Of a stretch of DNA of 52,732 nt, positions 2,154 to 45,962 are shown in pieces (position 1 is the stretch's first letter; every line of letters begins with the position of its first letter). The DNA comes from Candidatus Obscuribacterales bacterium (lineage in GTDB: Bacteria > Cyanobacteriota > Vampirovibrionia > Obscuribacterales > Obscuribacteraceae), in NCBI GenBank assembly GCA_019746975.1, contig JAIERK010000077.1, positions 1 to 52,732 of the forward strand, read 5' to 3'. The notes beneath the pieces were generated by a model. The model did no database searches, had not been told where the DNA came from, and saw nothing but the letters and a program-made list of their open reading frames with translations. A program made the translations under genes and the position numbers.

Positions 2154-3167
2154 TCAGGCTAGTTCCGCAAACCGCCATCGCCCATATGGATTGTAGAAGA
2201 AATTATCCGGTTCGTAAGTAGTGCACTCTTCCCATCGTACACGAAGTCGCTGCCAATCTTCGTTTGGGCGAAAAGTATCACCAGATTTGAAACCGCCGAT
2301 CGTGCACTCAATCATGAGGTACAGGCTGAACACGAAAAATAGCATTACAGCGGCATTTTCGTCGGGCAGATCCTCGGTGGCAATCTTCTCCAGGATCGAG
2401 CGTGAGATAATCATGTCTGGATAACCGAGCAAATGCATTCCGCATGAATACAAATCTGTTTCTGAACTAATTGGAAACTTTACGTAGGTTCGAAAAAGTG
2501 ATTCCCAGAACTCCGGTGTATCCGCTGGTTCATCTCCTGATTTCTCGCAGAGATCAATCCAACGCTGTCCCGAATGCGCGATACCAGAACTCTCGCATTT
2601 AATTGCAACAGCTCCTGCTTCCTCAATCAACCGCCTACCAATCTGAAGAAAAACATGACTTGCTACTGGACCCTGCGCTGATGGAAAATTTCTGCTCAGA
2701 ACATAAATTACTCGAGTGTGCTCATCGATTCGTTGAAGGTCATCGTCGTCCAGAGACGAAAACACACCATAGTCGCTAACTGCAAAAGCTGTGACCATGC
2801 GCTCATCATGCTCTTGAACCTCAAACTCGATATTCGCTTCTTGAAGGATGAAGGTGGCTCGCCTTTCGAACTCCTCATCGCCAACCAGGCATAGTATTAT
2901 TTTCGGTAAACAACCATCCCCGGTTACTTCTACGCGCAGGCGATGCCAGTCTGCCCAGCAGTTCTCTGGCTCTACATCGCAGTACCCCCTGCTCTCATCC
3001 ATACCGGCAGCCGCTTCGGGTGCCACCATCATACAGACCGCATTATCGCGAACGCTGATGACCTCGTCTTCTGTCAATGGCTTTCCTTTGACCTCCTCTG
3101 CCTGAGCTAGTAGCAACGCCAGAGAAGGCGAAAAGACTGGAATCAACTGTTCATCGTTTTCTGTCAT
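2154..3167 (-). CDS. DUF4261-like protein
   Basis: A cytoplasmic protein of 337 residues. The segment SSETDLYSCGMHLLGYPDM in its C-terminal half matches the hallmark of DUF4261-type domains (a Gly-Met/Leu-Gly-Pro-Asp loop), a family of unknown biochemical role often found near contact-dependent or stress genes. The start is placed at the ATG at 3167 because AAAGGTG lies about 10 bases upstream. An in-frame upstream start at 3206 would overlap the end of the preceding gene. The gap to that CvfC-like gene is only 14 bases, so the two are likely co-transcribed. The N-terminal 130 residues are acidic and unassigned. The family call rests on motif likeness only. Confidence 0.75.
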   Translation of the reverse strand: MTENDEQLIPVFSPSLALLLAQAEEVKGKPLTEDEVISVRDNAVCMMVAPEAAAGMDESRGYCDVEPENCWADWHRLRVEVTGDGCLPKIILCLVGDEEFERRATFILQEANIEFEVQEHDERMVTAFAVSDYGVFSSLDDDDLQRIDEHTRVIYVLSRNFPSAQGPVASHVFLQIGRRLIEEAGAVAIKCESSGIAHSGQRWIDLCEKSGDEPADTPEFWESLFRTYVKFPISSETDLYSCGMHLLGYPDMIISRSILEKIATEDLPDENAAVMLFFVFSLYLMIECTIGGFKSGDTFRPNEDWQRLRVRWEECTTYEPDNFFYNPYGRWRFAELA

Positions 3168-3181
3168 AACAGCAAGCACCT

Positions 3182-4294
3182 TTATCGATTTGAGATTTGT
3201 TTCCACATTGGCGCGAGACCTTCAGCACCACCACGAATTCTTGCAATCGCGGCTTCGGCTTCAAGGCGCACTTCAAAGGCCTCATCAATCAATGCGGTCT
3301 CCAAGAATGGGAGGGCGGTTTCGTCGCCCATATCGAAGAGAAATCGAGCCGCCCTCCAACGAACGAGTTTGTTAGCATCCGACAAAGCTTGGCACATTGC
3401 AGAATGAGCAGCAAAGTCGCCAATGTCTGAGAGCGCATCCCCCGCGGTGCGCCTCACTCCGACGGACGAATCTTCTAGCATCGCGTGGCAGAGGGGTTGA
3501 ACCGCGCGTGACTCGCCGCTCGCTCCCAGCGCCGCTGCTGAAAGTCTGCGAACTTGCGGATGCGCATCGGATAATGCTCGTTGCAGCAAATCAAAACTAC
3601 CCTGCAACCGACTCAGCTCAGTCACCGCCGCCAGTCTACGACTCCAGTCTGACTCACTCAACCATTCACCGGCAACCTCGACAGTCAGCTCACGTGAAGG
3701 CTTCTGTCCGAGCGCTTGTGCCACCACAGCTGCCAGCGCCGCCTGATCAAACATCCCTTCGAATTCCTCTTTGAGCTCGTCGGCTACCTCTTCGCGTTGT
3801 CCGTACCGTCTGCCGTGATCTGCCCAGTATCGCTCTGCAAGGAAGTCCAGTCCAGTCTCGTCTTGTATGTGCATTGCAGCCTCGGTAAAGCGCGCACCAA
3901 GAGCGACACGGCTTTCGCCTTCCGAATCGGTTACTTTGATTTGAATCGGCACACCCCGAAATGTTTGCACCAGCACGTGCACCTGACCTTCGGATTCTGC
4001 GTCTTTTCGCTGTTGGTCTATGGAAGGGGTCGCAACGATTTCTTGTCCTATTACTATTGCTGTCGCACTCTCCAAAATTGGTTTCCAATCTGCGCGTGGA
4101 TCCTTATTTAGGGTTATGAAGTCCGCGCATAAAAACAGGCTCTGCAAGCCGTTTATCTGCAGTAACTCCTTCTGCCAATTCGCAGCATCAGCGCAATTCT
4201 CTTTTGTTAGCGTTACAGCGGAGCCGAGCTGTTGGTCAAGGTTGAGCTTCATGCTATTTGGGTTTGGAGTTGTTTCGACTGATTTCAACTTCAT
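3182..4294 (-). CDS. cvfC: CvfC-like protein: Nfu N-terminal domain plus HEAT repeats
   Basis: The N-terminal 85 residues carry the Nfu/NifU N-terminal signature (TTPNPNSMKLNL, then an LFLCADFITLNK strand), the small scaffold fold seen in Fe-S cluster Nfu proteins. Residues about 215-355 are HEAT-type helical repeats, including VRRTAGDALSDIG and LVRWRAARFLFDMG. Order, length (370) and the C-terminal WKQISNR all match the staphylococcal conserved virulence factor C family (about 374 residues), whose molecular role is not known. The Cys-pair domain that would bind a cluster in true Nfu proteins is absent, so a scaffold or adaptor role is more likely than cluster assembly. It precedes the DUF4261-like gene by 14 bases. 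Confidence 0.9.
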   Translation of the reverse strand: MKLKSVETTPNPNSMKLNLDQQLGSAVTLTKENCADAANWQKELLQINGLQSLFLCADFITLNKDPRADWKPILESATAIVIGQEIVATPSIDQQRKDAESEGQVHVLVQTFRGVPIQIKVTDSEGESRVALGARFTEAAMHIQDETGLDFLAERYWADHGRRYGQREEVADELKEEFEGMFDQAALAAVVAQALGQKPSRELTVEVAGEWLSESDWSRRLAAVTELSRLQGSFDLLQRALSDAHPQVRRLSAAALGASGESRAVQPLCHAMLEDSSVGVRRTAGDALSDIGDFAAHSAMCQALSDANKLVRWRAARFLFDMGDETALPFLETALIDEAFEVRLEAEAAIARIRGGAEGLAPMWKQISNR

Positions 4295-4325
4295 ATGGTT
4301 TCGTTCAGAAACAAAAAATGTATGG

Positions 4326-5189
4326 TCAAGATCCAGCTCTAGTCAACGCCGCATTCACCCTTGTATAGAGCTCCGTCAGCCCCGGTTGTAAATCCTTCAT
4401 GGCAGGATCGTTTTTCAGGCTTTCCAGTTTAACCAGCGTTTCTTGCTGAACTCCAGGGGCCAAACGCGTGACAATGGTTGGGAATGTCTCTTTCATGTAG
4501 TCAACAAGTCTTACAAGTTCGCTTGTTTTATAGCTTTGCCGCTCCGAGAGTGATTGAACTGTCCCCGCTACCACGGTCGCAAGACCAGACTTCATCCGAT
4601 CTAAACCCTGCATTCTAGTTTCATACGTCGGATCATCTTTCTTGATGGTGACAGTGAGCTCATCTACAAGCTCCAGTAACACAACTACCGTTCGCAGTTG
4701 CAAACCCATCAACTCAATGATTTCATCAGCACCGATTTTATTATTGATAAAACCAAACAGATAGACTTTAAGTGTTTCACCGCCACCATTCATGAAATTG
4801 AGCGCCTGGCCGAGCCGCGCATCTAACGGCAGTGTCCGGCTCTTCAACATGTTGAGATTTTCCGGTGATGTTATTCGTTTAAAAAACTCACCAGATTGTT
4901 TGCTTTGATACCGAGGCAGCTTTTCGTAGCTATCTTCTGCGATTTCAGCAAGCTTCTTGCTTGCTGTCACCATATCGGTCGCGCTCCACTCCCGGTCGTG
5001 CGCTGGCATTCCAAGTTGTATGTACTCCTTGGACGTGAGAGATCGATCCGCCGCAACCGTTGACGTAACCGGAGCATCCGTCGCTGTGCCAGCAGGCTCG
5101 GCGGCGAAGGACGCGGGCACGCATGACCAGAGATTTATAGTCAGTGATAGGATTATTGTCGGGAGGCTGGTGACTCGTTGATTGCGCAT
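4326..5189 (-). CDS. Secreted helical protein of unknown function
   Basis: A protein of 287 residues with a clear Sec signal peptide: a basic N-terminus, a hydrophobic core (IILSLTINLWSCVPAS) and an Ala-rich cleavage region near residue 30. The mature part is almost wholly helical, rich in Lys, Glu and Leu, with no Cys pair or catalytic motif I recognise. It starts at an ATG with only a weak GAAGA upstream. It lies 31 bases upstream of the CvfC-like gene on the same strand and could head that operon. A periplasmic or exported structural role is inferred from the signal peptide alone. Confidence 0.78.
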   Translation of the reverse strand: MRNQRVTSLPTIILSLTINLWSCVPASFAAEPAGTATDAPVTSTVAADRSLTSKEYIQLGMPAHDREWSATDMVTASKKLAEIAEDSYEKLPRYQSKQSGEFFKRITSPENLNMLKSRTLPLDARLGQALNFMNGGGETLKVYLFGFINNKIGADEIIELMGLQLRTVVVLLELVDELTVTIKKDDPTYETRMQGLDRMKSGLATVVAGTVQSLSERQSYKTSELVRLVDYMKETFPTIVTRLAPGVQQETLVKLESLKNDPAMKDLQPGLTELYTRVNAALTRAGS

Positions 5190-5375
5190 TTAGAGATCTT
5201 CATGAAAGTAATCGTAAATATACTAACACGAGAGACTAATTATTTTAGATGTACATGGACGAAGGATAAAGCTATCGACCCGTTGTCACTAGCCACCATA
5301 TTAAGTACCAACATGATCCCTTGAAGTTCGAAGAAGTCATTCGCAAATGATTTCTTCTTGATACCATGAAGGATT

Positions 5376-6845
5376 CTATCTCGCTTTGACTTGTCGTTGT
5401 TGGCGGATTCGGCGAATTTCAGTAAGCAGCTCGCGAGACGAAACGAATCGATCGCTGACATCGATGGCGGTGCATTTTGCGAGAAAGGGATTTAGGTTCA
5501 AGCTGAGTTTAGAACTTTTGTCGACCTGCGAGACTTCGAGAGGAACAGGGTCTCGACCGGTAAGTAGAAAGTGGCAAGTGCAACCTAGAGCATAAATGTC
5601 GCTTTGAGGTACCGACTTTCCTCGAAGTTGCTCTGGTGGCATATATGATTGCTTCCCGACCATTGTTCCTGTGGCTGTGCCTACGAAGGCATTGGCCGCG
5701 CCGAAGTCAATTAAAACTAGCTGACCGTCCACTCTCAAGACTAGATTGTCGGGAGTAAGGTCTCGGTGAATTACGGGTGGATCTTGGGAGTGCAGATATA
5801 CAAGAATTTCGCAAATTTGCTGGGCCCAGTTAAGTACGAAATCCTCGGGTTGCGGCCCTCGTTCTTTCACGAAACGGCGCAAATCAAGACCATCTATGAA
5901 TTCAATCACTTCATAGTGGTGGTCGTTCTCAACGAAGTGATCTAGCACTTTCGCAATGTTCGGATGATTCAATTTGCTAAGAAAGAGAGCCTCGCGGTTA
6001 AACAGTTCGATTGCCTTAGCTTTCAGCGATTCTGATGAGTTCTTGGGGATAACGGCTTCCTTAACGATAATTTGTTCGCCGTTTGTTGCTGTCGCGGAAT
6101 AAATCGCTGCCGAGCCACCACATGCGACAAGTTCTGTCACTTTTATCGCTCCGCCGCGCAGCTCGGCTTCTGGTGCCAGCGGGACGAATAGAGTGGGTGA
6201 ATACCGTGTTGAAAACTCTTCATCCCAAAGATTGGTAAAGCTGTGAAAGTTGAGTTGCTTGATACCGGATACGGTGGAAAATTCGAGTGCCACTTTATCT
6301 AGTGACGGTTCGATCTCCGCATGCGAAGCATTCGTGACTATCGCGTAGATTAGTTTTTTCAGATCAAGCTGATCGATGTTTTTGAGTTTAATGTGTATAT
6401 TTACAAGTTGCCCTTTGAAGTCCGAGTCCAGGAATGTGAGCACGAGCTGATCTGCAACAGGCATACTCGCAGAGCTTCGAGAGAAGGTTACTTTATTGAG
6501 TTGCGACCAACTCCATCTGAGTTTGCTGGCACCCCAATAGATAGCGGGAAGAGTTATATCGCTTTGGCGAAGTATAAAGTCCTTTCTGATCAAGCATGAC
6601 ATCAAGAAAAGGTAGCCTGCGACATAGAGCAAGGCGACGACGCATGCGACCGTGCGAAATGGAGACAGATGCGGCAAGTTCGTGCATATAAAATATGTCG
6701 CGACTAGAACTACTGGCCAAAATATCTTCAACGTCACCAGGTGGGCGCCGTAAACCGGCGTATTGTGAGCGATACGGAAGACACCGCTGTGGTTGGAGGG
6801 TACTGCTGGGAGCTGTGGTGCTTCGGCTTTATTGGAGGCGTTCAA
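5376..6845 (-). CDS. Membrane-anchored Ser/Thr protein kinase
   Basis: A protein of 489 residues. Two membrane helices sit at about 40-58 and 66-86, followed by a beta-rich linker (to about 230) and a C-terminal Hanks-type kinase domain. Visible motifs are a shortened glycine loop (ACGGSAAIYS, about 242-251), Lys262 in IVKEA, the catalytic loop HRDLTPDN (360-367), DFG (380-382) and PPEQ in place of APE (403-406). All residues needed for catalysis are present. The start is a TTG preceded by GAGGG and overlaps the end of the upstream paralogue by 17 bases, indicating translational coupling. It probably phosphorylates cytoplasmic targets while tethered to the membrane; the substrate is unknown. 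Confidence 0.9.
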   Translation of the reverse strand: MNASNKAEAPQLPAVPSNHSGVFRIAHNTPVYGAHLVTLKIFWPVVLVATYFICTNLPHLSPFRTVACVVALLYVAGYLFLMSCLIRKDFILRQSDITLPAIYWGASKLRWSWSQLNKVTFSRSSASMPVADQLVLTFLDSDFKGQLVNIHIKLKNIDQLDLKKLIYAIVTNASHAEIEPSLDKVALEFSTVSGIKQLNFHSFTNLWDEEFSTRYSPTLFVPLAPEAELRGGAIKVTELVACGGSAAIYSATATNGEQIIVKEAVIPKNSSESLKAKAIELFNREALFLSKLNHPNIAKVLDHFVENDHHYEVIEFIDGLDLRRFVKERGPQPEDFVLNWAQQICEILVYLHSQDPPVIHRDLTPDNLVLRVDGQLVLIDFGAANAFVGTATGTMVGKQSYMPPEQLRGKSVPQSDIYALGCTCHFLLTGRDPVPLEVSQVDKSSKLSLNLNPFLAKCTAIDVSDRFVSSRELLTEIRRIRQQRQVKAR

Positions 6846-8211
6846 GTTGTGCCCTCATCTTGCCGAGGTTGGAATATCTTTCTGTCCGATTGAATTTTGT
6901 CGCTGTCGAAATAATGCTATCCATCGCCTTGCTGACCGATTTGGAATGGTGCGAAGGACGAGATTCTGTTATTGGTTCTGGGTCTAATCCCGTGAGCATA
7001 AAGTGAAGCGTGCACCCCAGCGCGTATAAATCGCTGGACTCTCCTAGCTCACCTTTAAACTGTTCGGGCGACATATAGGAATGTTTGCCGACAACCGTGT
7101 TGGTCTTGTTGCGGGTTAACTCTTGCGACGCATCGAAGTCCATTAGTCTTACGCTACCAGACTTGTCAATCATGATGTTGTCCGGAGTTACGTCACCGTG
7201 AATGATAGGTGGGGCCAGCTGGTGCATGTACGAAAGAGTCTCACACAGCGAGGCGCCAATTTTTGCTGCTATGGCTTCATTGATGGGACCGCTCCTCGCA
7301 ACAAGCTGGCGCAGTGTATCGCCATCAATGTATTCGATTACAAAATAGCCACGCATGTCTTCGATGAAGAAATCGTACAATCTAATGATCATGGGATGCG
7401 AAATGCGTCTTAAAATCGAGACTTCCTTGATGAGATTGTCCGTTGCTTTTTTCAGTCCGCGATCATTTGCAGGAAGGATAAATTCTTTGAGCACGACCTG
7501 CGAGGGCATATCTGGAAGTCCTGTTTGCGGTAATACCGAGGCCAGATAGGCTGTGCCTTGCCCACCTCCGCTCAAGATTCGTTCGACAGTATAACTGTCG
7601 CTCAGAACTGTTCCTTCCGCAATTGTTTGATCTTGTCTAAGCCGCCGCTCCGATTTCGTTAGGCTCATGTCTTTGAGCCAGAGTTCTGTGTAGGTAGCAA
7701 TTGATTCCGACTTGGTCAACTTCACATCTCCTTTGACTGTGGCATGTGGTGCCCATGTGCGAACGCACGAGATGAGGGTAGTTGAATCGATGGTATCGCG
7801 GACATCTTCCCACAGAATTAAAACATGTGATTTGTCTTTGAACTCGAAGTAGACATAATTGGGGATGATGCTGATCTTTCGTTGCCTGATTTCGACTCTG
7901 GCGAGCCAATCCCAGGGTACAACAGGGGAGGGCGTAATGTTATCGATATTGATACTCAGTCCCTTCGCTTTGAGTTCGAGTGTTGTTCGACCGGTGTGTT
8001 TACCTACAATCAGTATCAACTGAAGAACTCCCAAGGCGAACACTGCAGCAATTTGCCACCATGCTGCAACGTCCGCCATGCTTGAAACAATCAACCAGAT
8101 TATGGTCCCTGCGATGAATGCTGACCGATAGACAAAGCTTGCGTCTTCCGCAGTAGCCATCGTCGTCGGCTCGATGACAGGGTATTTCTCGGCTTTGGTC
8201 AGATCGGACAT
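6829..8211 (-). CDS. Membrane-anchored Ser/Thr kinase paralogue with altered motifs
   Basis: A protein of 460 residues with the same plan as its downstream neighbour: two membrane helices (about 29-46 and 52-71), a linker, then a kinase domain from about 205. The glycine loop (LSGGGQGTAYLA) and Lys242 in VLKEF are canonical. However, the catalytic loop reads HGDVTPDN (338-345) instead of HRD, and the metal-binding motif reads DFD (358-360) instead of DFG. Asp340, Asn345 and Asp358 remain. Loss of the HRD arginine is tolerated in some active kinases, but Gly-to-Asp in DFG is rare, so activity may be reduced or regulated differently. The overlap with the next gene suggests that the two act together. 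Confidence 0.9.
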   Translation of the reverse strand: MSDLTKAEKYPVIEPTTMATAEDASFVYRSAFIAGTIIWLIVSSMADVAAWWQIAAVFALGVLQLILIVGKHTGRTTLELKAKGLSINIDNITPSPVVPWDWLARVEIRQRKISIIPNYVYFEFKDKSHVLILWEDVRDTIDSTTLISCVRTWAPHATVKGDVKLTKSESIATYTELWLKDMSLTKSERRLRQDQTIAEGTVLSDSYTVERILSGGGQGTAYLASVLPQTGLPDMPSQVVLKEFILPANDRGLKKATDNLIKEVSILRRISHPMIIRLYDFFIEDMRGYFVIEYIDGDTLRQLVARSGPINEAIAAKIGASLCETLSYMHQLAPPIIHGDVTPDNIMIDKSGSVRLMDFDASQELTRNKTNTVVGKHSYMSPEQFKGELGESSDLYALGCTLHFMLTGLDPEPITESRPSHHSKSVSKAMDSIISTATKFNRTERYSNLGKMRAQLERLQ

Positions 8212-8455: not shown

Positions 8456-11272
8456 TTAGTCGAGAATTCCTGCCGCACGTGCCTTCAGCTTTATCTTTCT
8501 GATCTGATCTGCAACGGTTTCGATTTCCTTTGCGCTGAAGTCGTTTTGTTCTCTAGTCATCAGGAGCATTACAGCTAAATCTTTGATTTTGCCGCCGGCA
8601 CGCAGTACTTTGATTACAACCTGCTCTTCATCGGTAAAGTCGCTGTCCAATGTTCTTCTCAATATTTCCTCCTGATCTGCTAAACGAAGTTGTCTTTCGT
8701 GGAGGCGATTATCGTCAGTGTTTCGCGTTTTCTTTTCTATCTGGTCGCGCGATCTAGGTCCCTCTTTCAGGTCGATTGCCGGGGCTTGTGTCGAAGTGTT
8801 CCGTATGCTCAGTTCAATCTCGAGACCTTTTGGATCAGGTGGGCTCGGTAGCTTTAATTCGTTCTTTTTGCAAATTTGATCGAAGCGTCGTTCGATTTTG
8901 TCGGCGGCAATTTCTTGGATGTCTCGGACCGTGTCGAGCAGATCTACTAACCGAGCACGTGCTTCGTTGGACAGACTTTTGTCTTGAGCCGGGTCATAAC
9001 TTGTGTCTTTCAGTTGGCAATATTCGTCGTACCTCGCCTTCGTGGCAGGATCGAATTTTCCTGTGTCCATGGAGCCGAGATTGAGCTTCTGGGCTTTTGC
9101 AAATAGCTGGTCGACAATTGTGCCTCTGAGGCGTTCCCACGCTTTGCCCGTAGCAGCCTCTACGAGCTCTAATTCGTCGCAGAAGGTAGGGCAGTTTTGC
9201 AATCCTTTCTGCAGAGCATTCGTTTCTTGGACACCATATTTGTCTTGATGCGTTTTGAACGCCTTTTGCGCTTCAACTCTCGGATCGAAAACCAATTTTT
9301 CTAGAAGATTGTAGTGCTGCTCGAACTCTGGTGTATCGAGGATACGAGCTCTATCCGCACTGCAGGCACGTAATCGATCGACCAGCTGACGGTAACTCGG
9401 ATTCTCGCCATTCGCAACAAGCCGCTGTTTTTCAGCGTGGAAGGCCGACATCTCTGCGAAGACTTCGGATTCGCAGATGAAATAGCGAGAGCGCTGTCCG
9501 TGCTCATCACTAGCAGCTCTTACCGATTTCGGGTCGGCTAACGCCTGAACCACCAAATCTTGTGCCATGCTTTGTTTGACTAACGGATTGGTTGTATCGC
9601 GGGTGGCACCCAGGGTAACATCAGCCATCCGATCTCCTGCACCGGCAATAGCTTTTCGGTGCGAGTCACGCAAGACATTTTGCGTTTCTGCTGGCAATTT
9701 ATTGACGAATTGATGCGAGTAAAGATGTCCACTCTCATGAGCGACAACTCGGAAATCCCCGCCATCAGCGCTTATCATTATTTCGCAGATCGGGGGATCG
9801 AAGTGACCATAGGCGCTTGAATCAAATTGTCTTAACTTTAGTTGGTTGGGTCTATAACCTAATTCACTAAGCGATGCTACAGTGTCGGACACAAAGTTCT
9901 GTGAAACCGGAACATCATCAATGATTATGGTCATTCCGTCGAGATGTTCGGATCCAGGCTCGATACCGCGAAATTTGTATGTGCCAGGCGAAAGTGTATT
10001 TGTAACTTCTGCGTATGCAAGTTTAAGAACCTGAAATTGCTCCGACTTTTCTACGTCATTGGCGGCACGTAGGAGCTTTATTTCAGTCTCCATAAACTTT
10101 CTTTGAAGGTCAATTTCTTTCTGATCTGCTACTTCTCGAAGTAGCTCTGTCTCTGACGGATCTTTGGTCTTTTTTATCTTCTCTAAGATTGCTTCCCGCG
10201 AATCCACATCTGCCTTGAGTGCTGCAAAATCTCGGATAGCATCCAGCACTGGTCGATATTGCTTTTCGAGCTTCGAGACAATCGCTTCGGTTGGCCCGTC
10301 GAGAGGAAGCATGGACAATCTCGTGTTTGCTATACGAACAGTCTCTCTTATTTCCCTTCTTGTAGATTCTGGGATATCGTCGCGGAGGAGGCTTTGCTCG
10401 CCGGACTTCACGGTGTCTCGCAACTGTACTAGTTTTGCGAGGTCTGATCGGCCAAACGATTTCAAAATGAAATCATTCGTTTTGATCGGATCAGGAGGGA
10501 AAGGCATCGTCCTTGGACCTTCAAAGATTGACCTGTCGACGGAGTCACTTTGCGCTGCTGGATTTGCCTGGATATGCTCCAAGATTCTCGGGGAATGTAG
10601 CTTCGGTGCTTGCGATTTTTCTGCGGCCGGAAGCAGCTTATTTGAATCTGGAATCGCACGAATCTCTAAAATCCTTCCGTCAGGATGTGTAGCCGAAAGG
10701 TTACCTTGCGGGGTTCGAGTTACAATCAGACCCTTTAGCTCCAGCTCTCGCGCGATGGAATCAATGCCACCCATTTGCTTTAGCTCAGAGTGCTTAAGCT
10801 CGAGCGTGGAGAACTCTTTCTTCATTGGGCGCGCTGCTGCAAGTAGCCCGCCAAGGCCGATGACGATTGCTAAATCAAGTGCTTTTTCCTGCTCCGTGCT
10901 AAGCCTTACACCTGCATTCTCAATTGCTACCTTCGCGACAGCTTTTGTAGATTCGGATGCTATAGAAAACAGACTCATACTGGTGAGATGCTCGCTGAAA
11001 GTCTGCCCAGCTGTAGTGAGGAATTTTTCTGCCACGCTACGTTTTACCGCTTCGACCACCGCCTGTTCTTCCGCTTTGCCGAGGCTGATTCCAGCGGTGA
11101 TCAGCGCTCGATTTACGAATGGTTGCCTCGCTATAAAGTGGATTCGGAACACAAATTGCAGTTGCAGAAGGATATTGCGAGTCTGCAACAGCGAGCAGAG
11201 CGTCCTATCTCGGCAGAGCAATTTCACGCCGATCAGCGACTCAAAGAGAGCAAACTGGCCGAGTTGCGACAA
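8456..11272 (-). CDS. C-terminal piece of an inversion-split giant protein, with HExxH
   Basis: The authentic coding part runs from about 11097 down to the stop at 8456, roughly 877 codons. The 58 codons above it (11272-11098) are antisense of an inverted segment and look unlike protein. HESGH (9725-9739) is a zinc-metallopeptidase motif. About 88 residues later, SEVFAE offers a candidate third ligand Glu, as in gluzincins of the lethal-factor type. The remainder is charged and helical. If the segment 11087-11716 is flipped, this piece continues in frame from the upstream 1,637-residue ORF as residues about 1823-2698 of one protein. In the present orientation the piece lacks a native start. 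Confidence 0.75.
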   Translation of the reverse strand: MSQLGQFALFESLIGVKLLCRDRTLCSLLQTRNILLQLQFVFRIHFIARQPFVNRALITAGISLGKAEEQAVVEAVKRSVAEKFLTTAGQTFSEHLTSMSLFSIASESTKAVAKVAIENAGVRLSTEQEKALDLAIVIGLGGLLAAARPMKKEFSTLELKHSELKQMGGIDSIARELELKGLIVTRTPQGNLSATHPDGRILEIRAIPDSNKLLPAAEKSQAPKLHSPRILEHIQANPAAQSDSVDRSIFEGPRTMPFPPDPIKTNDFILKSFGRSDLAKLVQLRDTVKSGEQSLLRDDIPESTRREIRETVRIANTRLSMLPLDGPTEAIVSKLEKQYRPVLDAIRDFAALKADVDSREAILEKIKKTKDPSETELLREVADQKEIDLQRKFMETEIKLLRAANDVEKSEQFQVLKLAYAEVTNTLSPGTYKFRGIEPGSEHLDGMTIIIDDVPVSQNFVSDTVASLSELGYRPNQLKLRQFDSSAYGHFDPPICEIMISADGGDFRVVAHESGHLYSHQFVNKLPAETQNVLRDSHRKAIAGAGDRMADVTLGATRDTTNPLVKQSMAQDLVVQALADPKSVRAASDEHGQRSRYFICESEVFAEMSAFHAEKQRLVANGENPSYRQLVDRLRACSADRARILDTPEFEQHYNLLEKLVFDPRVEAQKAFKTHQDKYGVQETNALQKGLQNCPTFCDELELVEAATGKAWERLRGTIVDQLFAKAQKLNLGSMDTGKFDPATKARYDEYCQLKDTSYDPAQDKSLSNEARARLVDLLDTVRDIQEIAADKIERRFDQICKKNELKLPSPPDPKGLEIELSIRNTSTQAPAIDLKEGPRSRDQIEKKTRNTDDNRLHERQLRLADQEEILRRTLDSDFTDEEQVVIKVLRAGGKIKDLAVMLLMTREQNDFSAKEIETVADQIRKIKLKARAAGILD
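11087..11097 (+). repeat. Left 11-bp inverted repeat of the inversion
   Basis: GATTCCAGCGG, the exact reverse complement of 11706-11716. Identity stops at once on both sides. It encodes Asp-Ser-Ser-Gly on plus and Ala-Gly-Ile on minus, and marks one end of the 608-bp inverted core. Confidence 0.9.
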
Positions 11273-11638
11273 ATCAATCAGTCCGAACGAGACGGCAACG
11301 GCAGAGGTAGACTCGATCGCGTCTTGTCAGAGTTGGCCAAGCCGGAGTGGAAGGTAAATGATTGGGCTGATTGGGTTAAACACGACGGCGTGGTGATGGC
11401 TGCCTCTATAGGCGGTGCATGCGCTGCAGTTGCATTAGCAACAGCGGTCGTGGTGGCATCCGGTGGCACGGCATTACCTCTAGTCGCGACAGCGGCCGCG
11501 TTGTCTGCAGGTGGCATGATCGGCAGCCAGGCAGCTCTTGAAGCACAGCATGGTCTCGGAATGAGAAGTCACGGATCTGAGATTGGCGATCATCTGAGGG
11601 GTGAGAGGAAGGTAAACGCTGACGGCTCCTTGCGAGAT

Positions 11639-14600
11639 TCAAACATTGTCACTGATGTAGCCGGAAAATACCTCTGGGATTTCTCCGAAGGCACCGTCCT
11701 TAATGCCGCTGGAATCTATGGGGGCGAGGTGCTGGGTGAGATGCTGCTGCTCCCGATCCAGATTTTCGAGAATCGAATTGATTGCTGTGGCTCTGTCCTT
11801 CAGAGCTTTTCGCGACTCTGCATCTGTGATTGAGTCAGGCTGATCTTGTTTTACTCCCAAGCGATCTTGAATTGAGTCTCTTAACTCGCGTAACTGGTCG
11901 AAGTCCTTTTGATCGAGAGTTTTCAGTGCTTCTTTGATTCGAGCCGCGCGTTGTTGCGTGTCTTTGAAAAAATCCTCACATTTATCGCCGTTGACACCAG
12001 CTTCGATTTCTTTTTGAAGGACGGAAAGATCGGCGAATACTCGTTGGTTCAAGTCACTTAGTTTTACAAAAGCAGGCGTCGAATCGATATGTTGAAGTGC
12101 TACGTTTCGCATCACAGATGTGTCGTTACGCTTGGATAGGTGTTCTGTCGGTCGAAGTGCGGAGAGCAAATCAAGGGCATCGACTGTTGCCGCGCTTCCG
12201 GTTGGATCGATTGAGTAGTCTTTTTGGAGCAACGTCTCGAATGCTTTTTCACCGGGTAGACCCCTCCTCGAAAAAACGCCGGCGTTGATTCCTTCACCGG
12301 TAGCAAGAAGTCCGGTCTTCATTTCAGACGAGTTGTTGATACCGCCCAGACCGTAGTGCAGGGCGGTATTAAGTGCACACTCGTCCGCTTGATTGCGATC
12401 ACCCTTAGCATTGGCCGTCGAGTACTCGAATGCCTTTGTCGCAATGTCGAGTCCTTTAAGGCGAGCCACTGTTCTTTGCATGTCCAGGACATCTGAAGAA
12501 AGCGCAGTCTCTGTAAAACCAATTGCTTTAACCAGATCGCGCTGGGTCTTTTCGAACTGGGAATCGTCTGTGAGGACAGTTGGCAAGCCTTTCCAAACTG
12601 ACTTTTCGAGGTCGTGGCCGATACTTGTAATCGACTCCCAGGTGCTCATTCCGTCGGTAGTATGTCGGGCAAGTTCAGAGAGTTTTTTGTTTTTGCTGGA
12701 GACGAGATTTCCGAGATCGAGCTCCAGTGATTCTTTCTTCTTGACTGCGACATCTCGGGCTGCGACTATCTTTTTCTCGAAATCCGGCGAAGCGAGGAAA
12801 GCAATACGGGAGTCCTTTGCGTCCAGTGTATGATTGGCCATCTGGCCTAGCAACGAGAGTGAATCGATTCCTTGTGAGGTGCTGGTGAGACCTTTTCTCT
12901 GACCTGGTGTCAAATCGTTAAACTGCTTTGCATTAATCTTGATGGTGCTCAGGTCTAGAAGCACCCGTCCTTGCTGAAGTGGTGCTTGCGAGCCAGTCAG
13001 ATACTGACGCAACTTTGGCGTCAGGAGATTGACGGTATCTGCGTCCAATGTCTTTCCTGATAAAGACATTGAGGCACCATTTTGCAGCAGATCGGTTTTC
13101 CCATCATTGAGTTTGGCCCTAACGGCGTCTGTCAGCAGATTGAACTCACTCGCCGGAATTGTCTTGTTGGCTAGATCTTGTACCGATTGCGACACCGGAG
13201 CGAACACGATTACGCCCTCGAGTAACTGTCGGTGTTCTGCTTTGAGATGGGAGAGCTCTTCCTGTGAAACACCGCAATTTGCAAGAACGCTCGCCGGAAT
13301 TGCCTCTCCAGAAGCGACCTTGCCACCTCGCAATTTCGCAGCGAAATCTAGTGGTAATTTATTGACGGCGTCTGCGCTTAAATCGCGCACCGCTTTTAGT
13401 ACTGGGACGGATTCGGCCAATTGCAAATCTTTGCCGCCGAGCAAAAGGACTCGCAAATGTTCCGAGGAATTGACAGTTGTCGCATCGATGTGCCGTCCTC
13501 CGAGAGATATTGTCTGTCCCTCGTCGAGCTTTTCGTGAGAACCGCTAAACTCCGAGCGCAGGGTCTCGGGAAGTGCATTGTACATGACCATCTGATGAAT
13601 GATTTGCTGCATCTGCTCTGTTGAGTATTTCTGACTGGCTTTATCCACCAGGGCATGGAGAGCTTGATCGTCGAGTTGGCAGCCCTTTTCTTTTAACGTT
13701 GCCGCTATAGATAGCGGCTGTCCTGCACCGTGAGTCAACTTCGCAATAGCTAGTTCGATCGTCGGATTGTCTTTGTTGGCTTCTTTAATCCGCAGAAGTC
13801 GCATAAATTCCTCGGAGCCTTTAACTTCTAGGTTCGCCCCTTGCCAGTTCTTGGCGCCGAGGGCCAGCACCGCGACTGACTTCACATAAGTAGATTCTGT
13901 CGTATCTGCCATTCTCAGCAGTTGCTCAGCCGCCTTCTGTGGATCCTTGTGACCAGTTTCGAGCAGAATTTGCACCACTCGATCTGCATCCTGATCCGAT
14001 ACAGCCTTGCCAAGCTTGAGCATGGCATCGACTGCTCCCATCGGATCTGTTTTCTCTGTCAAAACGCTTCTTTGCAGTGACTTATGAACATAGTCTGGAA
14101 TGTCGTTGATGTTCAGAACGGCGGTAGCCGCTAAGGTTTTCTCGTCAAGAGTTGATGAGTCTTTACCGGCGGTATTAGTAGATAGCGTCGCCATTACGGC
14201 ATCGCGAATTTTGGGATCTTGCGAAGCGGCTTTAATTAATGCCTCTGATGCTTTGTAAGACAGGGTCCCATGATCAAGTGATTTTATTTTCGAGTCCGGA
14301 TGGATGCGTTTGTGCTCTGGATTTGCGTTATCGGAAGTATTCTGCTCTCCGACTCCTCTGGTGAGTCCCGCAAGAATTGTGATTGTTGCATCGGAGTTAT
14401 TTCGGCTGCTACAAAGCACATCGATCTGCTTTCCAAATTCGCGTCCTGCTGTTTGTCCATCATGTATCGAGAATTTGTTATTAACGCTCCCTGCGGCGCG
14501 GAGATAAAGTTCCCCTGTTGCCTTGTGATTGGCACCACCTGTAGTTATGGCTCTAGATATTCCAGACAACGCTGATTCAGTTTGTCTTGCGTATTTGAAA

Positions 14601-16552
14601 ACAGATGCTGGATCTAATTGGTTGCTGGGTTGATTGCATGCCCGATCAACAGTTGATTCGATTGACTCGCGCAAGGCTTTCCCACCAGTAGCATAGAGAT
14701 CTCTGGAAGACAGTGCTGTAGCTATCGCCGTGAATTCACTCTCTGAGAGCGACTCGCCCTTCTCAAGCAGAGTAGATAATGTTTCGACAGCTTGTTTTTT
14801 GATTTCATTGCGTTGTTGAACGGTATGATCTGCGAGGTCTGGTACGTACATCTTGTCCCTACCAACCAGGTTTCGATCCTCCGAAAGGATGATGGAAAGC
14901 GCTGCGCGCGCGTGTGGGTTATCCTCAAGTGCCTCGCATTGTAGGTGCTTAAGTGCTTTTGTTGAAGTTTCAGGAGCTTCGAGCTCACGAAGAGCCTGTT
15001 CGACAGCCAAGAAGCGTTTTAAATCGACTCCAGCAGTGGTGCAGTCTTTTGAGAGTTGCTTCAGTAATTCTTCTAACTTTTCTGGAGTCGGATTTCTTCC
15101 TAGCTCGCGGTACCCATCCTTAGCGCGCAACTCTCCGAGCGCCTCCTCCGGGCTCCAGGTCATTTTCATGCTCGCAAGCATGTCTCGGTCTCCGGTGCGA
15201 GCTTTTTCGATCATCTCTTTGAAATCATGCTTACCCGCCATCTTCACGAGGATTCGTTTGGCAAACTCATTTCCGTCTCCAGCTGCCCTGAGTAGCTCGA
15301 TGGCGTTCGTCTGTGCTTCTTTAGAATCGCCGCTCTGGATGTATTTCAAAGCGAGATCCAGCGCTTCCAAATCTCGAACCTCCTCGGAGAGCGAATTTAT
15401 TTTGCCGGCACGATCAACATCCTTCAATGTGTTTATTGCTCTGGACCGTGCGGGTGCATCGTAAGGATTTTTAAGGAAATCCGCGGCCGCCTTGTGAGAC
15501 TCCTGATTCTCGATCTTGTGTGCTGTGTCTATAGTGCTCAGAGCGTCGGGAAGATGATCTGCTAGTGTTCCGGACTTCGCGTATTTAGTAAGGGTTTCTG
15601 CGGCTTCACGAGCGACTGGGTCTGCGATCGATTTCAAATACTCGTCAACATCCTTTGGCGCTTTGCTCTTAATCTTCTGCGCGAAATCGGGAGGCGCCAA
15701 TCGGAGAAGATCAGTCACTCCCTCGGATAGGTGCTGTTTGATGGTATCAGCTGGCACCGTTTTGCCACCAAATTGTAAGAACCAGGTTGCCTCATGCGTT
15801 CTCAATTCTGCGTCCAGTAGAGATAACACCCTGAACTGCTGCTGAAGTTTCGGATCTCGAGCTGCATCTTGTTGCAGAGCTGAGAGCGCTTGAGCTGCAG
15901 CATTGCTGTCGAGCGCGTCAAAATACTCGCCAATTTGAGGCAAGCCCTGGGCGAGGAGCCACCTAGTACTGTTTGGATAATGCTCAAGGGCTAGTGGAAC
16001 AATCCTCTCGCCTGTTCGCTCAAAGTTCGCAACAACGCAATTGGGCGCTGGATTTGCAGGGTTAAGGTCTACCGACTGCTTTCCAGTCTTATCGTCGGTG
16101 TGTGTCACATCGGCACCGACCTTACCATTGTCTCCGGGTGAGCCGGCAGATATGAAATCATTATCTTTGAGGTTGGCGCTGAGATCTTGGCTGCTGTTCG
16201 TGTCAGACTTAGTAAAATTAGGCGTCTTCTCGTCGTCCTTCCCTCCGCCATCAACGGAGAAGTCGATGAATCCAATGTCTGGAAGAATGTCGTCGGTAGA
16301 GACCGTCGCCAGGTCGCTCGGAGCGGGAGCACCATCTGTGGAGTCGCCTGTCAAAATATCGAGCTGAGGCAGGCTCTTAGCCGTTGACGTCGACACCGAT
16401 GACTTTAAATCATCTGTGATTGAGTTGACCTGATCGGCCGTAGCTGAGACCACCAGGCTTGGTGTGTCACAATCTGGCTGTGCGTCGTTGTTCCTGGACT
16501 GCTGCCCTGGGTAATCTCTCATATTTGAACCCCCGTCGTTCCCCCAGGACAA
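11639..16552 (-). CDS. N-terminal piece of an inversion-split giant helical protein
   Basis: A 1,637-codon frame whose first 1,616 codons are authentic; the last 21 are antisense of the inverted segment. The N-terminus is acidic, Ser/Asp-rich and disordered (to about residue 170) with no signal peptide. The body is built of alpha-helical segments rich in Leu, Ala and Glu, resembling degenerate helical repeats. Phrases such as LTPGQRKGLTS and LTPKLRQYLTG recur at intervals of several tens of residues in the second half, and DLT/LSGKTLDA-type phrases repeat. No enzyme motif is seen in this part. Together with the flipped segment and the downstream HExxH piece it would form a protein of 2,698 residues. 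Its size and domain order suggest a large effector or structural protein; function is unknown. Confidence 0.85.
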   Translation of the reverse strand: MSWGNDGGSNMRDYPGQQSRNNDAQPDCDTPSLVVSATADQVNSITDDLKSSVSTSTAKSLPQLDILTGDSTDGAPAPSDLATVSTDDILPDIGFIDFSVDGGGKDDEKTPNFTKSDTNSSQDLSANLKDNDFISAGSPGDNGKVGADVTHTDDKTGKQSVDLNPANPAPNCVVANFERTGERIVPLALEHYPNSTRWLLAQGLPQIGEYFDALDSNAAAQALSALQQDAARDPKLQQQFRVLSLLDAELRTHEATWFLQFGGKTVPADTIKQHLSEGVTDLLRLAPPDFAQKIKSKAPKDVDEYLKSIADPVAREAAETLTKYAKSGTLADHLPDALSTIDTAHKIENQESHKAAADFLKNPYDAPARSRAINTLKDVDRAGKINSLSEEVRDLEALDLALKYIQSGDSKEAQTNAIELLRAAGDGNEFAKRILVKMAGKHDFKEMIEKARTGDRDMLASMKMTWSPEEALGELRAKDGYRELGRNPTPEKLEELLKQLSKDCTTAGVDLKRFLAVEQALRELEAPETSTKALKHLQCEALEDNPHARAALSIILSEDRNLVGRDKMYVPDLADHTVQQRNEIKKQAVETLSTLLEKGESLSESEFTAIATALSSRDLYATGGKALRESIESTVDRACNQPSNQLDPASVFKYARQTESALSGISRAITTGGANHKATGELYLRAAGSVNNKFSIHDGQTAGREFGKQIDVLCSSRNNSDATITILAGLTRGVGEQNTSDNANPEHKRIHPDSKIKSLDHGTLSYKASEALIKAASQDPKIRDAVMATLSTNTAGKDSSTLDEKTLAATAVLNINDIPDYVHKSLQRSVLTEKTDPMGAVDAMLKLGKAVSDQDADRVVQILLETGHKDPQKAAEQLLRMADTTESTYVKSVAVLALGAKNWQGANLEVKGSEEFMRLLRIKEANKDNPTIELAIAKLTHGAGQPLSIAATLKEKGCQLDDQALHALVDKASQKYSTEQMQQIIHQMVMYNALPETLRSEFSGSHEKLDEGQTISLGGRHIDATTVNSSEHLRVLLLGGKDLQLAESVPVLKAVRDLSADAVNKLPLDFAAKLRGGKVASGEAIPASVLANCGVSQEELSHLKAEHRQLLEGVIVFAPVSQSVQDLANKTIPASEFNLLTDAVRAKLNDGKTDLLQNGASMSLSGKTLDADTVNLLTPKLRQYLTGSQAPLQQGRVLLDLSTIKINAKQFNDLTPGQRKGLTSTSQGIDSLSLLGQMANHTLDAKDSRIAFLASPDFEKKIVAARDVAVKKKESLELDLGNLVSSKNKKLSELARHTTDGMSTWESITSIGHDLEKSVWKGLPTVLTDDSQFEKTQRDLVKAIGFTETALSSDVLDMQRTVARLKGLDIATKAFEYSTANAKGDRNQADECALNTALHYGLGGINNSSEMKTGLLATGEGINAGVFSRRGLPGEKAFETLLQKDYSIDPTGSAATVDALDLLSALRPTEHLSKRNDTSVMRNVALQHIDSTPAFVKLSDLNQRVFADLSVLQKEIEAGVNGDKCEDFFKDTQQRAARIKEALKTLDQKDFDQLRELRDSIQDRLGVKQDQPDSITDAESRKALKDRATAINSILENLDREQQHLTQHLAPIDSSGIKDGAFGEIPEVFSGYISDNV
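11706..11716 (-). repeat. Right 11-bp inverted repeat of the inversion
   Basis: CCGCTGGAATC on plus, the reverse complement of 11087-11097. The reading frame of the 1,637-residue ORF passes from authentic sequence into antisense sequence here and ends 21 codons later. Confidence 0.9.
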
Positions 16553-30706: not shown

Positions 30707-33700
30707 ATGACACGACCTTTGATTAAACCGATTGGCCGAACAGTCCTGCTTACGTCGTTGTTCTGTCTGATATCCGCGGATAAGTGGCAGCCAGCCTACG
30801 CTCGTAGCGACGATAGTGGGGCGCGCTCGGCCAGGAGGCTGGATCCGCCTTCCAGTGTCTCTCGCGCTTCGTTGGATGTTACGGATGCAGCAAAGGGTCG
30901 TGGACGATTTGCCAATTCTGATGCTTCATTCCGGCAGAATGCGCGGCAGGAGTGGGCATTACGGCGGGATCAAGTATTTCGCACTCCTAAGGCTGAGCAC
31001 CGCTTCTCATCTAAATTTCAGGTAGAACAGGAGCCGATAAGCTCTTCCCCCTCATCGAATAAAGAGACACGGAAGCATGCTGCTGAGAATGGAGCGCTAG
31101 TCACCCGCGGGCAGAATGTGCCGAGGATCACTTTGGGCGTTGCGGATGGTGGTGCCACCCAGAAGCAGATTGACCTGGATCTTACTTCGACGGAATCGGC
31201 AGTTGTCCTTGGCAAAAAACTTTTCGGTGATGCTGATTCAATTCAGATTACTGTAGGTGGCGAAACACGAACATTTCGCGCTGGTGATAAAGCCACTGCG
31301 GCTGAATATCTGGCAGTTACACAAGTCGCGAATGATGGAGTTCAGAGTCTTGTGCTGAACGCGCAAGGCGGTGCGTGCGGTGGCAGATTTAGCTTGGCAG
31401 AATCTGTTTCTCGACGGGTCGATGATCTGGTCATCGCTCAGGGCGTGACTGCGATTGACTACATCGAGCACAACGAGCGTGTTCAGATCGGCGGCGATTT
31501 GACTAACTATGGTTCTATTAACGCAGTGTCTGTAGGCGAGAGAAATACGAAAATCACGCTGTCAGGAAAGAACTTGATTAACGTGGCGGGTGGCTCGATT
31601 TCGGCAGCGGAAGGCAGAACCGGTGATGCGGAGCTTCATCTAGGCAGCAGCTCGCTGACGTTGACAGTGAAAGCGGATGAGCGAATTGCAAATACTGGTG
31701 CCATCTCAAGCGATGGTTTTCTGATCCTTGATGCCGGCGATAGTATCGGAAATGGTGCTTCGACCGATTCGCTTGGAATTCAGCAAATTCCGAGTATAAA
31801 AGCTCACCAGAGCATTACATTGTCTTCTGGAACGGGCAGCTTTTCCAATGAAGGTCTGATCTCTTCCTCCCGAGGTGATATTAATCTGCTCTCTCCATCG
31901 AACAGCTCCGATATCTACGTGAAGGCCGAGCGAGGGGTTTTCGAAGCGAGCTCCGGCGACATCAATGTGCGATCCGCTGCGTACGGCGGAGATGCCAGTG
32001 TCGTTATTCAGGGTGGCGACTATCTCTCTAAAAAGCTCAATATCTTCTCGGGTGGAGGCAACATCGATGGATCTGTCGGTCAAGTTGTCGGAAGTTTGAA
32101 CACCAGAGCTGGTATTGAACACTTTTATGCGTCCACCGAGCTACTCAAGATTGGTGACAATTGCATCACTGGAGATCCAACATTTGCTAACACAACTGGT
32201 GGCATTCAGATTCAAGGTGTCAACAGCTTCGGCGAGGCTGTTGCATTTCTTGCCAATGGAGATATCATCGCCGACAGTACTGCGCAGATTGTCGCTAACG
32301 GATACGATGTATACATGGTGGCTGGTGCAAATGTCACAGTAAGCTTCGGTCCTGAGACTTCAACTGTTCCTGGGACCCAAATAGTAACTGGGACTGCGAC
32401 GGTCGATTTTACACCTGGGGCGGGCGCTGGCGGAAGCATTGACTTGAGAGCTAGCAACGTTGCCACCATAATTGATACTGGCTCCTCCTCGATAGATGGG
32501 GGAAATGTTGTTTTAGCTGCGGTCGCCAACGGTAATGTCGGTGGATTTGTGCGTCTTAACACCTCGTCGACCATTCAAACGAGTTCGACTGCGAGTGATG
32601 GCAGCGCCGGCGATGTCACTGTATATGCTGGTGCCGATCCCGCCGCGGCCGCGATCACGATTGAGCTCGGCGACGTTGTAGCCAATGCTGGACCTGGAAA
32701 CGGGGTAGCCGGCAGTATTAACATCGCGACGGTCAAGCCGACTGGGAGTAATGGCACGCCGGTGACGTTTAACTCGCTCGGTCAAGTCATCGGTGGATCG
32801 ATCACCGCAGCAACGATTTCCGCTAATGGCAAAATTTCCGTCGGTAACCTCACGAACAACTCATCTAGCTCTATGCTGGGTGGTGTGTCGGTTTCGGCTG
32901 GCTCTAGTATCTTTTGTGGTGACATCTCCAGTGCTGGCAACGTTACTTTGAAAGCCCCAGAAGTGACGGTCGGTTCGATAACTGCTGGCGGCGAAATTGA
33001 TGTGCCAACCTCGACTCTGCATGTTCTGGGTAACATCAGCTCCAGCAAATTGGATGGACAAATTACCGTTGAGAGCCAGGATGATTTGACCATCGACGGC
33101 GGTGGGTCTTTTTCGCTGACCGGTGGAGGCGCTGGACAGATCAATCTTGATGCCAACGATGACCATACCCTTGCCTTCGCATCGTCTCTGACCTTTAACC
33201 CGGGTGCCAATGGAGTTGTGACAGCCACCTCTGAGGAAGATGGAGGTGAAGTTTCCATAGCAGCAGGCGCAGTGCTGACAGTCAATGACGGTGCAGATTT
33301 CAATGTTGGTGCACCGCTACTCAATTTTCTCGGAGATGGGGCGGAGATTCACGCGACCATGGCGTCAGAGATAACCGTGAGCTCCGGTGGTGGGTTACAT
33401 TCTCTCACCATTGCATCGCCAGATAATGGTGCTGCTGCAATTAGAACCACCGGCGGTGTGATCGACATCGAGCCTACCTTCGGGCATGATCTGGTGTTCA
33501 CGAATTTCCTCAATACAGGAATGTCGACGCTCAACTTGATGGGTGGACCCGTCACGACAAGTACTGCTGCGGCTGGAACCTTCGTCCAATCAGGAGTGCA
33601 CCTCAACTCTGATAGCGCTTTGTCCATGGGAGTTGGTGCCAATGGCGGTATCATCGGTCTTGGATTTCAACCTTACGTCGGGTCTTTCGTCAACGGTAAC

Positions 33701-45037: not shown

Positions 45038-45168
45038 TGTACACTGACCGGACAAACCCGTAAGATCGTGCTATGTATAACCGATCTGTGTCCACTGCTA
45101 AAGTGGTTTACTTGACGTTGACCGGGGTAATCAGTAAGATCGTGCTATGAATAGCCGGTCAATGTACA
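45038..45168 (+). promoter_or_regulatory. 131-bp element with terminal inverted repeats and a 74-bp internal duplication
   Basis: TGTACACTGACCGG (45038-45051) is matched at 13 of 14 bases by the inverted CCGGTCAATGTACA (45155-45168). Inside, GTAAGATCGTGCTATG occurs at 45060-45075 and 45134-45149, 74 bases apart, each copy flanked by GACCGG on the left and CCGRTC on the right. The second copy contains the AbiEi start codon (45147). AbiEi-type antitoxins are known to bind inverted repeats in their own promoter, so duplicated operators are one reading. A small TGT...ACA-ended mobile element inserted at the gene start is another. Confidence 0.6.
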
Positions 45169-45962
45169 CTAATTCCTGGTTCTTTGCTCGACACCCAGTT
45201 TTCAGAGTCGAGGAGTTTGCCGCTGCGCGCAAGGGGACTAAGCGGGTATCTCAACATGCGTTGCTTTCACACCACATAGCCATGGGGCGGCTGCTGCATG
45301 TGCGTCGAGGGCTCTATGCGGTCGTGGCTGAAGGCTTCACGGCAGACTCTTACAGTGTTGATCCATACCTGATTGCCGCTAAGGCGATGGATGATGCCAT
45401 TATTGCCTACCGATCAGCACTCGCCCTTCACGGCTACGGTTATTCGGTGCATAAGTCAATGACGTACTTGACCACAAAACGAGAATCAACCAAATTCGAT
45501 TTTCAAGGCACCGAATATATTGGAGCCACTCAACCGAAGGCACTGATGAAGCAAGGGAAAGAATCTAGCGGCGTTGATTTGATAGATCGTGCAGGTATGG
45601 AAATTCGCGTCACTTCGCTGGAGCGAACGCTGGTGGATTGTTTTGATCGGCTCGACCTGGCTGGCGGAATCGAGGAGGTTTGGCGCTCCATGGAATCGGT
45701 TGCGTATCTCAAACTGAAGCCATTGCTTGAATATGTCGCGTTTTTAGAGAATGCCGTGACCGCCGCTAAGGTGGGCTTATTCCTGGACATGAACAAGGAG
45801 CGACTGCATTTGTCGGAGCAAGACATTGATTCTCTGCGCGAGCGGCGACCAAAGACCCCCACATATATGTTTCGCAGCGAGCGCTCTGGAAAGCTAGTCC
45901 ACGACTGGAATTTGATCGTGCCAGGCAATGTTCTTGAACGCACATGGGAGGAGCCATTTTGA
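45147..45962 (+). CDS. abiEi: AbiEi-type antitoxin (type IV toxin-antitoxin)
   Basis: A protein of 271 residues. The N-terminal winged-helix region (HPVFRVEEFAAARK, followed by HHIAMGRLLHVRRGLYAV) and the following DPYLIAAKAMDDAIIAYRSAL are typical of AbiEi antitoxin/transcriptional regulator proteins. The C-terminal half has the family's conserved VTSLERTLVDCFDRLDLAGG. In this family the N-terminal domain represses the operon by binding repeats at the promoter, and the C-terminal domain counteracts the toxin without direct stable binding. The ATG lies inside the repeated 131-bp element. It overlaps the toxin gene by four bases (TTGA). Confidence 0.9.
   Translation: MNSRSMYTNSWFFARHPVFRVEEFAAARKGTKRVSQHALLSHHIAMGRLLHVRRGLYAVVAEGFTADSYSVDPYLIAAKAMDDAIIAYRSALALHGYGYSVHKSMTYLTTKRESTKFDFQGTEYIGATQPKALMKQGKESSGVDLIDRAGMEIRVTSLERTLVDCFDRLDLAGGIEEVWRSMESVAYLKLKPLLEYVAFLENAVTAAKVGLFLDMNKERLHLSEQDIDSLRERRPKTPTYMFRSERSGKLVHDWNLIVPGNVLERTWEEPF

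What the first reader, a model, noticed from the sequence alone, without database searches (positions are those of the whole stretch)
11087..11716. A 608-bp inversion between 11-bp inverted repeats splits one giant gene
The minus-strand frames ending at 11639 and starting near 11097 are separated by a segment whose plus strand is protein-like. GATTCCAGCGG at 11087-11097 is exactly inverted at 11706-11716. Flipping the segment makes both junctions in frame and yields one ORF of 2,699 codons, 8456-16552. The 8,097-base length is divisible by three and no stop is created. That three independent conditions hold argues strongly that the ancestral or alternative state is a single gene. It could be a reversible on/off or C-terminal-swap switch, a fixed microinversion, or an assembly event. 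The segment carries a hydrophobic hairpin, so orientation would decide whether the membrane-active part and the HExxH domain are made.
Basis: partly seen in the sequence, partly recalled or inferred. Interest (0 to 1): 0.88.

Follow-up and report, generated by a model that had tools for sequence, protein, structure and literature searches.

The report
Flipped segment splits giant gene
In this bacterium (likely a Candidatus Obscuribacterales) a 608-base piece inside a very large gene lies backwards between two matching 11-base sequences, so the reading frame is cut in two, while the related genes found here that carry this piece keep it within a longer open frame; it is likely a recent accidental flip, and whether it can flip back is untested.

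Summary
GATTCCAGCGG (11087-11097) is exactly inverted at 11706-11716. The segment between them has a coding-like frame only on the plus strand, against the giant minus-strand frames on either side. Frame arithmetic puts all three frames in register.

Stronger evidence is homology. Searched apart, the pieces hit relatives in the order N-M-C on one strand of one long ORF: all three in 6 of 21 ORFs, N-M in 6 more. A profile of the segment matched 72 places in 20 of 53 genomes of the order. Of these, 71 lie in open frames of 640-4,944 codons; the window's lies in 319. So this copy is an inversion inside a formerly single gene of a giant-protein family without a Pfam or NCBIfam match over cut-off.

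A switch is not shown: no integrase- or resolvase-family match on this contig, arms that do not extend, no comparable case in about 2.1 Mb of the genome, no orthologue found, no reads to examine. Best reading: a recent microinversion at short inverted repeats, predicted to stop the full-length protein. A reversible intragenic inverton remains possible.

The parts
11717..16552 (-). N piece: front 1,612 codons of the giant gene (first listed start TTG 16552; ATG at 16522 is the likelier start)
   Evidence: the window's own copy in the protein database, P0004, has 1,627 aa
11706..11716 (.). right arm of the 11-bp inverted repeat
11098..11705 (+). M piece: inverted 608-nt segment; coding frame 11099-11704, 202 codons, hydrophobic Gly/Ala-rich domain conserved in the family
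11087..11097 (.). left arm of the 11-bp inverted repeat
8456..11086 (-). C piece: rear 876 codons plus stop
9725..9739 (-). HExxH motif (HESGH) in the C piece
   Evidence: H, E, G, H and the following L invariant in the 8 aligned sequences
9452..9466 (-). downstream EVFAE with two invariant Glu residues, candidate third zinc ligand
   Evidence: alignment A5; zinc role inferred
11639..11716 (-). present-state tail of the front frame: 25 codons past the N piece (arm included), then stop

Best explanation
A 608-base segment inside one giant gene lies inverted between two 11-base inverted repeats, and this likely arose by a recent one-off flip at those repeats that would leave the gene unable to make its full-length protein. 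Shown: the segment's orientation, the repeats at both breakpoints, the frame agreement, and the forward arrangement within longer open frames in the relatives found. Inferred: the flip used the short repeats by illegitimate recombination or replication template switching; it is recent, because no stop has accumulated in any piece; and in the present state a cell would make a truncated front part without the hydrophobic domain and the HExxH domain, and perhaps a detached rear fragment from an internal start. What the intact protein does is not shown; the conserved HExxH...E pattern suggests a zinc-peptidase-like domain in the rear part.
For: Piecewise blastp: M hits 12 of 21 long ORFs, each time on the coding strand and behind the N match; 6 of these 12 also carry the C match behind M in the same ORF (the 20 loci had been chosen for N or C matches). 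A profile of 8 forward relatives, searched against the three pieces only, finds M at 3.2e-44, the end of N at 4.2e-7 and the start of C at 3.6e-4, in this order along the profile. Distances between matches are close to those in paralogue L029 (68 residues there against about 74 here at one junction, 44 against about 32 at the other), so no sizeable piece is missing. Segment profile: 71 of 72 matches lie in open frames of 640-4,944 codons, among them 9 of 10 in the window's own genome (1,910-4,527); the window's lies in 319 (8 of the 72 are the profile's own rows). The 11-mer occurs 10 times in the genome; no contig but this one holds two. No internal stop lies in N, M or C. About 4% of single substitutions in these pieces would be nonsense, so for neutral pieces the inversion is younger than roughly 0.9% substitutions per site (my estimate: 3 expected hits / (8,070 x 0.04)).
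Against: No reads and no orthologue: the front piece found no relative in the protein database except the window's own copy (a word-limited search that scored about 8,000 candidates), and no orthologue was found in two congeners, so 'recent' and 'fixed' rest on indirect evidence. The genome has 29 matches to the tyrosine recombinase family over the cut-off on other contigs, so a trans-acting invertase is not excluded. The spacer inversions by template switching reported in yeast had spacers of only a few bases, and were called reversible (PMC8604942, passages); 608 nt is far longer. Of 23 in-frame starts before the HExxH codon, two (ATG 10507, GTG 10207) have a Shine-Dalgarno-like stretch, so a rear fragment might still be made.
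Confidence: 0.62

Rival explanations
1. A reversible intragenic inverton: a recombinase acting in trans flips the 608-base segment back and forth between the 11-base repeats, turning the giant protein on (forward) and off (inverted).
For: Clean arms at both breakpoints, intact frames in all pieces, segment wholly inside the coding region. 29 tyrosine recombinase matches over the cut-off elsewhere in the genome. Intragenic DNA inversions exist as a class (review PMC11868660, passages that cite them; the primary paper, Chanin 2024, was not held).
Against: No integrase or resolvase family match on this contig. Arms only 11 bp with no extension. No comparable site in about 2.1 Mb of the genome. 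Paralogues keep the segment in long open frames. Passages of PMC11892184 call invertases near invertons the likely candidates for flipping.
Confidence: 0.2
2. An artefact: a chimera of amplification or a misjoin in the assembly of this draft genome.
For: The sequence is one of 263 contigs; how it was made is unknown to me. MDA chimeras are mostly inverted joins, often primed at 2-21 matching bases (PMC1855051, abstract).
Against: Those chimeras carry an intervening deletion in most cases (same abstract); here two junctions agree and spacing is close to a paralogue's. Eleven bases are shorter than the words assemblers usually use (general knowledge), so repeat collapse is unlikely to create it.
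Confidence: 0.14
3. Two or three separate working genes, the present arrangement being the functional one.
For: The front frame is an intact 1,627-aa ORF (P0004); two internal starts of the rear frame have a Shine-Dalgarno-like stretch.
Against: No relative found shows this arrangement; the segment's plus frame is a fragment of a conserved domain.
Confidence: 0.04

Closest known systems
Intragenic DNA inversions / intragenic invertons (Chanin et al. 2024; known here from recall and from citing passages in PMC11868660)
   Same: An inverted segment bounded by short inverted repeats wholly inside a coding sequence, changing the product
   Different: Only one orientation is seen here; no reads, no nearby recombinase match; the inverted state truncates the protein
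Spacer inversion between short inverted repeats by polymerase template switching (PMC8604942, yeast, passages)
   Same: Perfect arms over 9 bp, spacer inverted inside coding sequence
   Different: Yeast, and spacers of a few bases against 608 here
Site-specific switches with short inverted repeats, such as the E. coli fim promoter switch (recalled)
   Same: Short arms, a few hundred bases of spacer
   Different: That one flips a promoter and has recombinase genes beside it
HExxH...E zinc metallopeptidases (gluzincin-like, recalled)
   Same: HExxH and invariant downstream Glu residues in the C piece and seven relatives
   Different: No Pfam or NCBIfam match over cut-off and no significant PDB sequence match; structure models too poor to compare

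Membership tests
intragenic inverton | inverted repeats bounding a segment inside one coding sequence | tested here: met
intragenic inverton | both orientations present in one population | not testable with these tools
   no reads available; one copy in the genome and only the window's own copy found in the protein database
intragenic inverton | recombinase gene close by | tested here: not met
   31 PF00589 and 4 PF00239 matches in the genome, none on this contig; no other recombinase family was searched; a trans-acting enzyme stays possible
microinversion at short inverted repeats | breakpoints at inverted repeats, no loss of sequence | tested here: met
microinversion at short inverted repeats | derived state against relatives | tested here: met
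   71 of 72 segment matches in long open frames; relatives are paralogues or distant homologues, not orthologues
MDA inverted chimera | inverted join with intervening deletion | tested here: not met
   spacing close to paralogue L029 at both junctions
HExxH...E metallopeptidase | HExxH plus downstream Glu conserved in the family | tested here: met
   H, E, H and two downstream Glu invariant in 8 sequences
HExxH...E metallopeptidase | match to a known peptidase family by sequence | tested here: not met
HExxH...E metallopeptidase | peptidase fold | not tested
   models had mean pLDDT 50.0 and 37.8, so no fold comparison was run
HExxH...E metallopeptidase | catalytic activity | not testable with these tools
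   needs a bench assay

The most novel reading that the evidence does not exclude
Obscuribacterales use a trans-acting recombinase to flip a segment inside a giant zinc-peptidase-like gene: an intragenic on/off switch of a whole 2,698-residue protein in a bacterial lineage from which no such switch is known to me.
Probability: 0.18. Interest if true: 0.72.

Novelty: new member of a known kind. Interest (0 to 1): 0.42.

Why it matters
It is a clean natural case of a short-repeat inversion seen before any piece has acquired a stop, in a gene so long that the event can be read from sequence and paralogues alone. It also brings to light a family of giant proteins without a Pfam match over cut-off, with the segment found in 20 of 53 genomes of the order. 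If reads show both orientations, it would be an intragenic switch of an unusually large protein in a little-studied lineage; if not, it shows that split giant genes in drafts can be microinversions and should be checked before being called two genes.

Tried and rejected
Orthologue search: the front piece and its conserved part found only the window's own copy in the protein database; the rear piece found nothing in genome contigs or viral contigs, and in the genus it matched only the window's own genome (1 of 3 genomes). Synteny: the kinase pair beside the gene is conserved in both congeners at about 59-67% identity, but no ORF of 150 codons or more in those three loci matched any piece of the split gene. 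Flip candidates elsewhere: the next with coding-like composition in all three parts (in C231) lies antisense to a 603-codon ORF; the two next by the shorter outer frame (in C235 and C255; segment scores -0.097 and 0.032) are neighbouring genes on one strand. The other candidates on the list were not followed. A link between giant genes and kinase pairs: kinase matches in 1 of 20 giant loci, rejected. Structure models of the C domain and of the M domain of relative L071 were poor (mean pLDDT 50.0 and 37.8), so no fold search was run. A weak match of the M profile to hemolysin BL component L1 (E 0.015; 0.59) was taken as not significant and not pursued. Rfam and tRNA scans of the window gave nothing. 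Promoter- and terminator-like sites over the gene are no more than in shuffles. Literature searches: Obscuribacterales with 'giant' gave two papers, off topic by title; two searches on intragenic inversions or invertons found none and one found four.

Full report
What was claimed. A 608-base segment between 11-base inverted repeats splits one giant gene, perhaps as a switch.

The sequence. The arms are exact and do not extend: 7 of 20 bases agree on either side. The window is contig C226 of a 7,545,175-base genome in 263 contigs. ORFs: minus 8456-11272, minus 11639-16552, plus 10988-11833. Phase arithmetic gives 0 at both junctions. The length divisible by three follows from that and is not an independent condition. 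The segment has a coding-like composition only in one plus frame (0.167 per codon, no stop; its other five frames -0.09 to -0.36 with 5 to 12 stops); N and C score 0.161 and 0.112 in their minus frames and negative in all antisense frames (their other minus frames were not scored).

How surprising is the repeat? Repeats of 11 bp or more are common (82 pairs in the window with spacers of 50-5000 nt). What matters is that one sits at both breakpoints that homology allows; equal intervals slid along the window do so in 116 of 51,931 positions, 84 of 51,899 without the real pair. In 2,098,852 bases of this genome (40 stretches, about 28%; 61,140 bases are N, which inflate the count of long repeat pairs) there were 399 frame-consistent flips and 92 with coding-like composition in all three parts; the window's case has the longest outer frames (2,633 and 4,868 nt). 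By the shorter outer frame the next two have 1,967 and 3,095, and 3,832 and 1,633 nt, with segments that look hardly or not coding; both are neighbouring genes on one strand. The next with coding-like composition in all parts lies antisense to a 603-codon ORF.

Homology, pieces apart. N (1,612 aa), M (202 aa) and C (876 aa) were compared with 21 long ORFs from 20 loci, 7 of them in the window's own genome and 13 in other genomes of its family, chosen from matches to the front or rear piece. M hits 12 of 21, always on the coding strand and behind the N match; six ORFs (L029, L030, L031, L032, L034, L037) show N, M and C in order in one frame. A profile from eight forward relatives places the end of N, M and the start of C one after another (only the three pieces were searched, and the start of C is the weakest at 3.6e-4). 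In the 53 genomes of the order that the search covered, the segment profile finds 72 matches in 20 genomes (some genes give two matches, and 8 matches are the profile's own rows); 71 are in open frames of 640 to 4,944 codons, the window's in 319. The 640-codon case runs off a contig end; one gene in G008:C9 is broken but on one strand. So the window's orientation is likely the derived one, with the reservation that the comparison is with paralogues and distant homologues.

No orthologue. Searches with the front piece gave only this copy in the protein database; an intact protein of 2,698 residues would have been within the length range of these searches, which score only the candidates that share most words. 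The genus has two other held genomes; neither matches the rear piece, G002 alone gives weak matches to the front piece, and the neighbouring kinase pair is conserved in both without the gene. A close relative does exist in public data: P0006 is 95% identical to the intact paralogue on C86 over the region searched.

Who is it? The one named relative found is a Candidatus Obscuribacterales metagenome-assembled genome (L071, JAKFUT010000033.1).

What the protein might do. Neither Pfam nor NCBIfam gives a match over its cut-off. The rear piece has HExxH and downstream Glu residues invariant in eight aligned sequences, which suggests a zinc-peptidase-like domain (inference; no significant PDB sequence match). 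The segment is a conserved Gly/Ala-rich hydrophobic domain followed by invariant Gln, Gly, Arg and Ser residues. The models were too poor to use.

How it likely arose and what it does now. A flip at the arms brings every frame into register, so the event was an inversion without sizeable loss. There is no match on the contig among 31 tyrosine and 4 serine recombinase family matches in the genome, and among the 11-mer's 10 occurrences no other contig holds two. A one-off illegitimate or template-switch inversion is therefore the simplest reading. Template switching between short perfect repeats inverts spacers in yeast coding genes (PMC8604942, passages), though there with spacers of a few bases. 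The absence of any internal stop in 8,070 coding bases with a nonsense fraction near 0.04 bounds its age at roughly 0.9% neutral substitutions per site, unless selection or flipping back keeps the pieces intact. In the present state the front frame ends 25 codons past the N piece, so the full protein would not be made. A rear fragment is not excluded: of 23 in-frame starts before the HExxH codon, 21 lack and 2 (ATG 10507, GTG 10207) have a Shine-Dalgarno-like stretch (my first check, looked at fewer starts and did not reach these two).

Switch or accident. Intragenic DNA inversions are a known class (PMC11868660, citing passages; primary paper not held). Membership needs both orientations in one population, which cannot be tested here. 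I give the switch 0.2, an artefact 0.14, the one-off inversion 0.62; the corrected start-site count did not change these odds.

Noticed in passing
window 5376-8211: A pair of protein kinase genes beside the split gene, conserved at about 59-67% identity in both congeners (L213, L214, L215); each of the three genomes of the genus gives about 150 kinase matches, the number of candidates scored.
   Followed up: partly
window 30707-39034; L215:5461-13815: A second giant ORF (2,775 aa) without a Pfam match over cut-off; a relative of similar size (30% identity over its front) lies beside the conserved kinase pair in congener G002.
   Followed up: no
L103 (G008:C9) 2751-6937: Another member of the giant family broken into two frames on the same strand, by a stop or frameshift or an assembly error.
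   Followed up: no
P0006 against L030 (G000:C86): A 3,042-aa protein in public data is 95% identical to this genome's intact paralogue over the searched region, so a very close relative has been sequenced.
   Followed up: no
window 45147-46930: An AbiEii-type nucleotidyltransferase gene (PF08843) overlapping an upstream ORF without a Pfam match, possibly a type IV toxin-antitoxin pair.
   Followed up: no
window 3182-4294: A 370-aa protein that joins an Nfu N-terminal domain, a PF13769 domain and HEAT repeats.
   Followed up: no
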